From contig CAMEON010000023.1 in assembly GCA_945929845.1 (NCBI GenBank), forward strand, positions 1-32,245: 32,245 nucleotides of DNA. Reading direction: 5' to 3'. Source of the DNA: an uncultured Clostridia bacterium. Lineage in GTDB: Bacteria; Bacillota; Clostridia; Oscillospirales; CAG-272. Below, in pieces: positions 1 to 9,263 of the stretch (within the stretch, counting starts at the first letter, position 1; each line of letters begins with the position of its first letter). The position numbers and the translations under genes are program-made. Under the pieces are notes generated by a model. It was not told where the DNA came from and made no database searches. It saw only the letters and a program-made list of their open reading frames with translations.

Positions 1-791
1 AGTCCCCGGTAGCCCATGCGCCGAGCCAGGGCGGCCCACAGCTTGAGAAAATCATACCAGTTGTCGTCGTCAATGATGACAGACACAGGGAAGCCCAGCT
101 CCACCCGGGCCTCTGTCTTGGTGGCATACTCCCCCCGGAGCCAGCGGAGGCAGGCACTCATGCGGGTCTGAGCCGCCTCTCCCCCCTCCAGGTAGGCCCG
201 GTAGTAGGAAGTGATGACCCGGGCGAAGTCAAAGCCGCCCACCAGGAACTCCAGCTCCCGCATGGTGTCGCTGACCCGGGCACTCATCCGATCGGCGAAG
301 CGGCTGTCCTCCGGGGACAGCCCCTCCCGGAGCAGGTCATCCTGCATCTGCCCGATCCAGCGGGCGATCAGCTTGGGCAGTGCCCCGCCATCCGGGGAAG
401 CCTTGGAGGCCAGATTCTTCATCAGCTCCCGGTAGGTGGCCACGCCGGAGCCGCCGCTGCCGTACAGCCGTCGCTCCGGGGACAGGTCGGCATCGGCGGT
501 CAGGAAATCCCGCTCCAGGGCATACCCCCGGATCAGCTGGATCAGGAAGCTCTTGCCGCTTCCGTACCGTCCGATGAGGAACCGCATGGTACCGCCGCCG
601 CTGTCCAGGTGCTCCAGGTCAGAGAGCAGGGCGGCGATCTCGTCCTTGCGCCCGATGGCAATGTAGGGCGCACCGGCCCGGGGCACCACCCCGGCGGACA
701 CCGAGGACAAAAGGGATCCCAGGATCCGGCGGGGCACCCTGACCTCCCCGGCTCCGCCCGTGGTAGCTGTATTCATATCCGTTCCGCTCAT
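1..791 (-). CDS. BrxD-like / DUF2791-type P-loop ATP-binding protein, truncated at the window edge (C-terminus missing)
   Basis: Manual reverse translation from ATG at 791 (SD AAAGGAGTG just upstream): MSGTDMNTATTGGAGEVRVPRRILGSLLSSVSAGVVPRAGAPYIAIGRKDEIAALLSDLEHLDSGGGTMRFLIGRYGSGKSFLIQLI...; Walker A GRYGSGKS; TEARVELGFPVSVIIDDDNWYDFLKLWAALARRMGYRG resembles the BREX BrxD/DUF2791 family. Open through position 1. Confidence 0.82.
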   Translation of the reverse strand, partial: MSGTDMNTATTGGAGEVRVPRRILGSLLSSVSAGVVPRAGAPYIAIGRKDEIAALLSDLEHLDSGGGTMRFLIGRYGSGKSFLIQLIRGYALERDFLTADADLSPERRLYGSGGSGVATYRELMKNLASKASPDGGALPKLIARWIGQMQDDLLREGLSPEDSRFADRMSARVSDTMRELEFLVGGFDFARVITSYYRAYLEGGEAAQTRMSACLRWLRGEYATKTEARVELGFPVSVIIDDDNWYDFLKLWAALARRMGYRG

Positions 792-843
792 GTGAACACT
801 CCTTTTCCGTGTAAATATCTGCCTGTCCGGCCATACGGACAGG

Positions 844-2742
844 TCAGGGGGCATCTTCCAGCAAGGCTCGGACGGTCTCCCGGTAATCCTCCAGGACGAC
901 ATAGGTGCCGTCCCCCCGATCCTCCAGGATCACATCGAAGATCTCGTTGTCCGCCGTGATGCTGTTGACCCGGTCAGCCAGGGCATCCGGCATGGTGTGC
1001 CAGGCATCCGCCAGCGACCGCTGGCCAGCCCTGTCCTCCGCCAGAGCCAGCCGGACAAAGGCACACAACGGCCCCAATGCCGCCCCCAGGCCCCCTGCTT
1101 CGGGGGCTGTGACGGCGGTGGCCTCTGCGGGGGTAGCCACCGCAGGTGCCGGGGTGGCTGTCTCCCGGGGTGGCTCCGGTGCGGTGTCCGGCTCCTCCCC
1201 GCCGTCCCCTCCGAAAGCCTCGGTCAGGATCCGGGTGGTCTCCCAGGAGTCCCGCTCGATGGCGGCCGCATCGGCCATAGACACCTCCTTGCGGGGCAGA
1301 TCGTACAGAGCCTCGTACGCCGGCCTCGGTGCCGCCTGCGCAGGGGATGCCGCCGGGCGGGCGGGAGCCAGGGGGGCCAGGTAGTCATCCAGCGCATCCT
1401 TCACCGAGGCGGGCAGGGACATGACCGACAGCCGGGAGCGGACGCCGATCCAGCTCCGCAGACGATTCTCCATATGCCTGACCATGTCGCCCACCAAAAA
1501 CCGCAGTTCATGGGAGCGGGAGAAGGAGGTGTAGGACACCAGGATCCGCCGTTTGTTCTGGTAGGCGCAGAGGGCACCGGTGTAGGCATCCCGGATCATG
1601 CCGGAGTCCTGAAGCTGGATGAGGGGCGGCTTCCCGTTCCTACCCAGAAGCAGGGGCAGGACAGCCGAGATCCCGCCGGGGATCACCCTGTCAAAGAGCG
1701 GCCCATGCTCTCCGGCGGCAAATTTGCTTTTATGGTAATCATACTGACAGCAGTAGCGCAGAAGGATCCGGGCACTTTCCATGTCGTGGCCTTCCCCGCT
1801 GACGGTGTCGGACAGGTAGAATTCCTTGAGTTGGCTGATCCGCACGATCTCATCCAGTGCCGGAGCCAGCCGATCCACCGGGGCGTTCAGGTGGTGGAGC
1901 AGGCAGAAGTCACACAGCCACTCGCACATGTAATGATCCAACTGCGGGTACGCCTTGCGGTAGGCCATCCACAGGTCTGCCATGCCGTCCCGGATGCGTG
2001 CCGCCTCCCTGCCTCCGGCGGTCTCCAGGGGCAGGTTGATCAGTTCAAACAGGTAGAGCAGGATGTAGGCATAGTCGGTATCGGGGTAGGAACCGTGCCG
2101 CACCCTGTCCCGCCAGGTCAGGTACCAGGCAAGCTGGCGGCGGCTCAGCTGGGCATACTGGGGAAAGAAGGAGAAGAAGGGCTCCTGCCGGGCTTCCCTC
2201 GTCCGGATCGGCTCCATGGCGGCGTACCGTTCCACATCCTTGGTGAACTGATCAAAGTAGTGGTAATTGGAACGCCAGGCGTACACCTGCACCCGGTGGA
2301 GCAGGACGCCATCCGGGTCGTACTCATCTATGGGCTGAGCTCCCTCCTGCTCCTTGGCCGTGTGGGGCGGTACATAGTGGGGGGTACCCAGCTCCGTCCC
2401 GGACAGCGGGCCGGTGCCCTCCGGCACTGCCTTCTTCGGGGTCGCCCCGGCGGTGGTCTTCCCGGCAGAGGCTGCCCCGGCGGGTGCCGACTGGTCTGGC
2501 CTGACCGTCAGGGGAGCCGGGCGGACAGTCTCTGCCGTGTCTGCGCCCTGCCCCCGGCCGGAGGCAGAGGCAGGGGTAAATTCCACCTCCACCGCCTGGG
2601 GTGCCTGCGTCTTCCCTTGCAACGGGCTTCGGTTCCCCGTGCGGGTCGGGCCGGGCTTTGCGGGAATCAGCCGACTGATGTCCCAGAAATCATCCAGCTC
2701 CCTGTCACGATCCTTCCTGTCCCCGTCCTTTATCTCTGCCAC
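844..2742 (-). CDS. TerB N-terminal (and probable TerB C-terminal) domain protein
   Basis: 632 aa ORF, GTG start. FFSFFPQYAQLSRRQLAWYLTWRDRVRHGSYPDTDYAYILLYLFELINLP is a typical TerB_N signature; the C-terminal part fits a TerB_C-like region. Upstream of and co-directional with the ATPase. Confidence 0.82.
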   Translation of the reverse strand: MAEIKDGDRKDRDRELDDFWDISRLIPAKPGPTRTGNRSPLQGKTQAPQAVEVEFTPASASGRGQGADTAETVRPAPLTVRPDQSAPAGAASAGKTTAGATPKKAVPEGTGPLSGTELGTPHYVPPHTAKEQEGAQPIDEYDPDGVLLHRVQVYAWRSNYHYFDQFTKDVERYAAMEPIRTREARQEPFFSFFPQYAQLSRRQLAWYLTWRDRVRHGSYPDTDYAYILLYLFELINLPLETAGGREAARIRDGMADLWMAYRKAYPQLDHYMCEWLCDFCLLHHLNAPVDRLAPALDEIVRISQLKEFYLSDTVSGEGHDMESARILLRYCCQYDYHKSKFAAGEHGPLFDRVIPGGISAVLPLLLGRNGKPPLIQLQDSGMIRDAYTGALCAYQNKRRILVSYTSFSRSHELRFLVGDMVRHMENRLRSWIGVRSRLSVMSLPASVKDALDDYLAPLAPARPAASPAQAAPRPAYEALYDLPRKEVSMADAAAIERDSWETTRILTEAFGGDGGEEPDTAPEPPRETATPAPAVATPAEATAVTAPEAGGLGAALGPLCAFVRLALAEDRAGQRSLADAWHTMPDALADRVNSITADNEIFDVILEDRGDGTYVVLEDYRETVRALLEDAP

Positions 2743-2790
2743 GGAACCACCCCCCTTTCCTATGCAAAAATGCGTGTTGGGTAATACATT

Positions 2791-2819
2791 ATTGTATCAT
2801 ACATGCGTCCGTTTGTCAA
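2791..2819 (-). promoter_or_regulatory. sigma70-type promoter for the TerB/ATPase operon
   Basis: Minus strand TTGACA-17 nt-TACAAT (TTGACA AACGGACGCATGTATGA TACAAT). Confidence 0.75.
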
Positions 2820-2922: not shown

Positions 2923-3152
2923 GCCCCATCCCCCCACCCCCTTCCCGGCGGGAAGGGGGCAGAGTCTAAGTTTTTTTGCAAGGGGCCTGCGGCCCCTTGC
3001 ATCCCTGCCTTTTTACGCCGGACGCCAGCTGTGCTAACCGGATGTTGTATAACACTGGGCGCATTTGCAGGGGAGCCGGGGACGGCAGTCCCCGGCGAAA
3101 AATCTTTCGTCTCCCCCTTCCCCGCCGGGGAAGGGGGTCGGGGGGATAGGGC
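2923..3152. repeat. MITE-like palindromic intergenic element with ~37-40 bp terminal inverted repeats
   Basis: Left GCCCCATCCCCCCACCCCCTTCCCGGCGGGAAGGGGG (2923-2959) matches the reverse complement of the right end GCCCTATCCCCCCGACCCCCTTCCCCGGCGGGGAAGGGGG (3113-3152). Each end is itself a hairpin; internal hairpins GCAAGGGGC/GCCCCTTGC and GCCGGGGA/TCCCCGGC. Confidence 0.7.
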
Positions 3153-3332: not shown

Positions 3333-3812
3333 ATGAAGAACCGTATCATATTCCTTGATATTGACGGGGTGCTGAACAGTGTCGCCTATGACAGGGTCAG
3401 AACCGCAGAGCAGACCAACATTGACCAGACCAGGCTCCCCCTGCTCAAGGGCCTGGTTGATGATACGCAGGCTATCCTGATCCTGTCCAGCTCCTGGCGC
3501 AAGCACTGGAGTCCGGATGAGGCGCAGTGTGACCGGATCGGGCGGGAACTGAACCGTATCTTTGCCGAATACGGGATGGTGATTTCAGGGAAAACGCCCC
3601 AGCGGCCTGACGGCGACCGGGCTGGGGAGATCAGCGACTGGCTGGCCTGTCACGGCGGGATCGCATCGGTTTCGTTTGTCATCCTTGACGATGCGCCCTT
3701 CGGCTGGGGGGTGTTGCAGGATCATCTTGTAAGAACCGATGCCCGCATCGGCAGAGGGCTGGAGGACAGGCACATCCGGAAGGCTGTGGAAATACTGTGC
3801 CGGGACAGCTGA
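3333..3812 (+). CDS. HAD-domain protein, similar to HAD domains of 'Swiss Army Knife' RNA repair proteins
   Basis: MKNRIIFLDIDGVLNSVAYDR (HAD motif I DxDG) ... ILILSSSWRKHW (motif II) ... FVILDDAPFGWG. Confidence 0.75.
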   Translation: MKNRIIFLDIDGVLNSVAYDRVRTAEQTNIDQTRLPLLKGLVDDTQAILILSSSWRKHWSPDEAQCDRIGRELNRIFAEYGMVISGKTPQRPDGDRAGEISDWLACHGGIASVSFVILDDAPFGWGVLQDHLVRTDARIGRGLEDRHIRKAVEILCRDS

Positions 3813-8945: not shown

Positions 8946-9263
8946 GTTACAGTTCACCTACTCCCCCACAGCGCACTCCCTTTTCCACCGTAGAGCGGGG
9001 CGAGGGGTCCCCGCGATGGCGTTTCTGTTGCTTTCGGTACCAGCAACGCTGGCTCCTCTGGGAAAAAGACAACAAATATACGACAGAATAACGCTCCGAA
9101 TCATACACAATACATGTTTTGAAAGTTCTTGGGGGTCTGGGGTCGGAAGTTTGCCGCATGGCAAACTTCATGCACTGGCAACATCCGGCATCGCCGGTGG
9201 AGCCAGTGCTGTTCTTCTCAAGAAGCCCCCAGGCGTTCTCCCGTACCCTACCTGAACTGTAAC
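8946..9263. repeat. Composite intergenic repeat bounded by inverted GTTACAGTTCA / TGAACTGTAAC
   Basis: GTTACAGTTCA at 8946-8956 and TGAACTGTAAC at 9253-9263. Contains a CCTACTCCCCCACAGCGCACTCCCTTTTCC segment and a GTTTTGAAAGTTCTTGGGGG segment, each with a second copy elsewhere in the window. Confidence 0.7.

What the first reader, a model, noticed from the sequence alone, without database searches (positions are those of the whole stretch)
1..2819. TerB-domain protein plus BrxD-like ATPase: left edge of a probable Ter/BREX-related conflict or DNA-processing module
Seen: a dedicated promoter, a TerB_N-type protein (844-2742), then a P-loop ATPase with Walker A GRYGSGKS and the IIDDDNWYDFLKLWAALARRMGYRG stretch typical of the DUF2791/BrxD group, both on the minus strand 52 bp apart. 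Established knowledge: DUF2791 ATPases occur in some BREX types, and TerB domains mark predicted stress/DNA-processing systems. Inference: the operon continues past position 1, possibly with a helicase or further effectors, and may be an uncharacterised defence system.
Basis: partly seen in the sequence, partly recalled or inferred. Interest (0 to 1): 0.78.

Follow-up and report, generated by a model that had tools for sequence, protein, structure and literature searches.

The report
Left end of a Shango defence operon
The two genes are SngA and a truncated SngB of the known anti-phage system Shango, not a new BREX-like system; the unexpected part is that in this family of gut bacteria Shango is present in about three quarters of good genomes, is inherited vertically and sits among housekeeping genes.

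Summary
Window 844-2742(-) is a TerB_N/TerB_C protein and 3-791(-) is the N-terminal 263 residues of a BrxC/BrxD-type ATPase; the contig ends inside that gene. Both are best matched by subunits of a known system, Shango: SngA (6.9e-39) and SngB (1.8e-88, 296 bits against 84 for BrxD). The BREX reading fails: the BrxD equivalog cut-off is missed and this is the genome's only BrxC/BrxD match. The third subunit, helicase SngC, is in the same genome on a 4.5 kb contig. So it is a new member of a known kind. What is not ordinary came out on the way. SngB occurs in 140 of 198 family genomes (90 of 119 good ones), against 17 of 299 others in the phylum. SngB and SngC trees follow RpoB. Recurrent neighbours are alaS, ribF/truB/rbfA, nrdR and uvrA. 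In part of the family SngC has moved away from SngAB, yet 132 of 141 genomes with either have both. This looks like a long-resident, near-core Shango; whether it still works only as immunity is open.

The parts
844..2742 (-). sngA: TerB-like subunit SngA, 632 aa (TerB_N at residues 181-307, TerB_C at 493-625, low-confidence linkers at 59-118 and 513-548)
   Evidence: PADLOC SngA 6.9e-39; Pfam TerB_N 2.6e-17, TerB_C 1.4e-5; AlphaFold model mean pLDDT 81
3..791 (-). sngB, 5' part: residues 1-263 of about 440-470; ATPase with Walker A GRYGSGKS; the rest lies beyond the contig end
   Evidence: PADLOC SngB 1.8e-88 over profile 5-246 of 439; BrxC_BrxD 4.3e-84; only SngB match in the genome
2791..2819 (-). 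promoter-like site of the sngAB operon: TTGACA, 17 nt, TACAAT
   Evidence: consensus scan, 11 of 12
792..843 (-). 52 bp sngA-sngB spacer with an AAAAGGAG ribosome-binding-like stretch before the sngB ATG
   Evidence: sequence

Best explanation
The locus is the promoter-proximal part (SngA and the first 263 residues of SngB) of a Shango anti-phage system. SngC, the SF2 helicase, is encoded elsewhere in the assembly (contig C89) and probably follows SngB after an unassembled stretch, as in the sister genome G003. Shown: domain content, the presence of all three subunits, conserved ATPase and helicase motifs in relatives, near-strict co-occurrence, largely vertical inheritance and housekeeping neighbours in this family. 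Inferred mechanism: SngB, a BrxC/BrxD-type AAA+ ATPase, and SngC, a helicase, form an ATP-driven machine that engages invading DNA. SngA, the fastest-evolving subunit, is the adaptor or sensor that recognises a phage-specific state or recruits the machine. In this family the system has become a long-resident chromosomal form of innate immunity, not a mobile island cargo.
For: SngA and SngB are the best profile matches. SngC is in the same genome (1.3e-239) with DEAD and Helicase_C domains. In the family 132 of 141 genomes with SngB or SngC have both, and SngA was found in as many relatives as SngB (31 and 31 of 58). SngA lies directly upstream of SngB on the same strand in 55 of 57 loci. A Walker A pattern (G-x4-GK-[ST]) was found in all 60 SngB; DE[VIL]H in 54 of 56 SngC and helicase motif VI in 53 of 56. 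Prevalence is 90 of 119 good family genomes against 32 of 119 for type I HsdR, and 17 of 299 other phylum genomes for SngB. 14 of 28 supported SngB splits and 14 of 33 SngC splits recur in the RpoB tree, shuffles at most 2. SngA tree length is 51.0 against 19.5, 16.7 and 9.1 for SngB, SngC and RpoB. Anti-phage activity of Shango is published (PMC10250203).
Against: No phage assay exists for this clade. The molecular mechanism of Shango was not found in the papers held, so the division of labour among the subunits is inference. The C23-C89 join is not proven: the first 107 bases of C89 do not match the end of SngB in G003. Fast evolution of SngA could be weak constraint instead of an arms race. 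Near-core, vertically inherited and unlinked genes are unusual for an anti-phage system.
Confidence: 0.8

Rival explanations
1. The trio has been domesticated in this family into a chromosomal genome-maintenance machine (for example clearing stalled or damaged DNA), with anti-phage activity secondary or lost.
For: Near-core prevalence in the family, one copy per genome as a rule, trees congruent with RpoB, and SngC detached from SngAB yet retained. Neighbours are core genes: alaS directly after sngB in 7 genera, ribF/truB/rbfA, nrdR and uvrA.
Against: About a quarter of good genomes lack it, so it is dispensable. SngA evolves 5.6 times faster than RpoB by tree length. Horizontal replacement still happens (G018 and G016).
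Confidence: 0.15
2. A new BREX-related or Ter-related conflict module.
For: SngB has a weaker BrxD match (2.1e-24) and the Pfam family is named BrxC_BrxD.
Against: SngB scores 296 bits against 84 for BrxD; the BrxD equivalog cut-off is missed; no other BrxC/BrxD protein is in the genome; the helicase partner is SngC.
Confidence: 0.03
3. A decaying remnant: the operon in this genome is truncated biologically, not by the assembly.
For: SngB's 3' part was not found anywhere in the assembly and SngC is on a different contig.
Against: SngA and SngB run uninterrupted to the end of the contig; the assembly has 104 contigs and is 93% complete. SngC is full length. Congeners have intact trios.
Confidence: 0.05

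Closest known systems
Shango (SngA-SngB-SngC), Pseudomonas aeruginosa PA14 / Escherichia coli
   Same: Same three subunits by profile; order SngA then SngB; TerB, ATPase and helicase as described in PMC10250203.
   Different: In one published gene table the three genes are compact (SngC overlaps SngB by 4 bp, SngB is 4 bp from SngA; PMC11973324). In P. aeruginosa Shango sits in a variable defence hotspot. Here SngA and SngB are 52 bp apart, neighbours are housekeeping genes, and in part of the family SngC is unlinked.
BREX types that carry BrxD and a BrxH helicase
   Same: Same ATPase superfamily (Pfam BrxC_BrxD). SngC groups with BREX, Druantia and Dpd helicases in a published tree (PMC12278908).
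   Different: Fails the BrxD equivalog cut-off; no other BrxC/BrxD match in the genome.
Hachiman (HamA-HamB) and Bunzi
   Same: Hachiman: helicase-based surveillance of DNA (PMC12278908, abstract). Bunzi: shares a TerB domain (PMC10952713).
   Different: Neither has the SngB-type ATPase as far as I know (own knowledge); no profile match to their subunits here.

Membership tests
Shango | SngA: TerB-like protein | tested here: met
   PADLOC SngA 6.9e-39; Pfam TerB_N over its cut-off
Shango | SngB: ATPase next to SngA | tested here: met
   PADLOC SngB 1.8e-88, but only residues 1-263 are in the contig
Shango | SngC: DEAD/DEAH-box helicase in the genome | tested here: met
   G000:C89 1515-3914(+), 1.3e-239
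Shango | three genes in one operon | tested here: inconclusive
   SngC is on another contig; linked in the sister genome G003 with a GH39-type gene between SngB and SngC; C89's first 107 bases do not match the SngB end of G003
Shango | protection against phages | not testable with these tools
   needs an experiment
BREX | BrxD at NCBI equivalog level | tested here: not met
   83.6 bits, cut-off 350 (partial protein); SngB 296 against BrxD 84 bits in the same PADLOC search
BREX | separate BrxC (large ATPase) in the genome | tested here: not met
   the only BrxC_BrxD match in the 93% complete genome is this SngB
BREX | PglX methyltransferase and PglZ phosphatase | not tested
   none among the window genes scanned with PADLOC; no genome-wide search was made
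TerB/TerC/TerY tellurite-resistance systems | stand-alone Ter proteins with TerC/TerY/TerD partners | tested here: inconclusive
   the protein has fused TerB_N and TerB_C only; no Ter partner among the window genes scanned with Pfam

The most novel reading that the evidence does not exclude
Shango has become a near-core, vertically inherited chromosomal system in a whole family of gut Clostridia-type bacteria. Its helicase has separated from SngA-SngB in one large part of the family while co-occurrence was kept, and it may serve a cellular DNA-maintenance role besides or instead of phage defence.
Probability: 0.2. Interest if true: 0.65.

Novelty: new member of a known kind. Interest (0 to 1): 0.4.

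Why it matters
Anti-phage systems are usually patchy and mobile. A lineage that fixed one, inherited it with its core genes and let its subunits drift apart on the chromosome gives a natural test of which subunits must work together in trans, and of whether Shango does anything for the cell apart from immunity. It also shows that a TerB plus BrxD-like pair at a contig edge can be Shango and not a new system.

Tried and rejected
BREX membership was rejected. SngA homologues in the PDB: none by profile and none by fold, best Foldseek E 0.59; the viral fold library was likewise empty, so no nuclease or other effector fold could be assigned. SngB has no solved relative by sequence. Joining C23 to C89 by matching the start of C89 to the SngB tail failed. 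Reading the window as a defence island was rejected: 20 other window proteins gave only ABC-ATPase matches for one ABC transporter and one PDC-S07 match for a NUDIX-like protein, and the genes include rimP, nusA and infB. Literature searches for a Shango mechanism or for vertically inherited defence systems found nothing usable. The family could not be named: its records carry only MAG titles such as Clostridia bacterium or Oscillospiraceae bacterium.

Full report
What is there. On the minus strand a strong promoter-like site (2819-2791) precedes a 632-residue protein (844-2742) with TerB_N and a just-sub-threshold TerB_C domain. After 52 bp comes an ATPase gene starting at 791 that runs off the contig end. 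Against PADLOC the first is SngA (6.9e-39) and the second SngB (1.8e-88), with BrxD a distant second at 84 bits against 296. The NCBI BrxD equivalog is missed by a wide margin and no other BrxC/BrxD protein was found in the genome. The pair is therefore the start of a Shango operon. Shango is a TerB, ATPase and helicase system with published anti-phage activity (PMC10250203).

The missing subunit. A full-length SngC (799 aa, DEAD plus Helicase_C) is on the 4508-base contig C89 of the same genome, preceded by a GH39-type glycosidase gene. In the sister genome G003 the order is SngA, SngB, the same GH39-type gene, SngC (a further ORF lies before SngC). This makes C89 the likely continuation, with the rest of sngB unassembled. 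It is not proven: the first 107 bases of C89 do not match the end of SngB in G003.

How common. In 198 genomes of the family SngB occurs in 140 and SngC in 133 (90 of 119 good genomes each). 132 genomes have both, 8 SngB only, 1 SngC only. Control: 17 of 299 other genomes drawn from the phylum. In a draw of 247 genomes from the order SngB is in 56; matches outside the family fall in about a dozen other families, most often f16 and f17. A type I restriction control in the same family gives 49 of 198 (32 of 119 good).

Inheritance. Trees of 50 genomes were compared. Fourteen of 28 well-supported SngB splits and 14 of 33 SngC splits recur in the RpoB tree, where shuffled labels reach at most 2. 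Two family members (G018, G016) carry divergent copies, G018 grouping with G040 from another family, so replacement by transfer does occur. Matrix correlations with RpoB, outliers removed, are 0.61 (SngB) and 0.60 (SngC), and 0.77 between SngB and SngC.

Separation of SngC. In 55 of the 132 genomes SngB and SngC are on different contigs. Some of this is fragmentation, but not all. In G019 the two genes lie inside contigs of 364 and 276 kb, and in seven genomes of distinct genera alaS directly follows sngB in the place of sngC. The unlinked state needs 3 changes on the RpoB tree against at least 10 for shuffled labels, so it was inherited. SngB and SngC distances still correlate in the unlinked set (0.61, permutation maximum 0.44; 0.42 after removing RpoB). 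That fits continued joint function in trans but could also reflect shared ancestry not captured by RpoB.

Neighbours. Recurrent neighbours are core genes: alaS, ribF, truB, rbfA, nrdR, uvrA. In the window itself rimP, nusA and infB lie 12-20 kb away, with no other clear defence gene among the proteins scanned. Of 144 flanking ORFs in relatives each PADLOC family shown was hit by one member only. This ORF set was chosen by length and contains some false ORFs.

How it probably works. Shown: in relatives a Walker A pattern is present in all 60 SngB examined, and DE[VIL]H and motif VI patterns in 54 and 53 of 56 SngC; SngA and SngB are adjacent in 55 of 57 loci. SngA changes fastest (tree length 51.0 against 19.5, 16.7 and 9.1 for SngB, SngC and RpoB). 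Its model is confident outside the linkers (mean pLDDT 81) but matches no solved or viral structure. Inferred: SngB and SngC form an ATP-driven DNA machine, and SngA is the specificity or adaptor part. A published helicase tree puts SngC with BREX, Druantia and Dpd helicases (PMC12278908).

Verdict. The finding is a real, known system in a new host.

Noticed in passing
window 2937-2959 and 3114-3136: Two copies of a G+C-rich palindrome (CCCCTTCCCGGCGGGAAGGGGG type) in the gap between the sngA promoter and the HAD gene; none expected by chance. A separate stretch at 9089-9182 is 81% identical to C89 3981-4073 downstream of sngC.
   Followed up: partly
L024 123-1469; L029 6827-8143: A GH39-type glycosidase gene lies between SngB and SngC in G003 and just upstream of SngC in the window's genome.
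   Followed up: partly
window 3333-3812: HAD_SAK_2 domain protein (HAD domain of Swiss Army Knife RNA repair proteins) divergent from sngA.
   Followed up: no
L030 (G018) and L035 (G016): Divergent Shango copies that disagree with the RpoB tree; G018 groups with G040 of another family: likely horizontal replacement.
   Followed up: partly
G085:C374 and G085:C240: Three SngC matches in one genome, two of them in tandem on C374.
   Followed up: no
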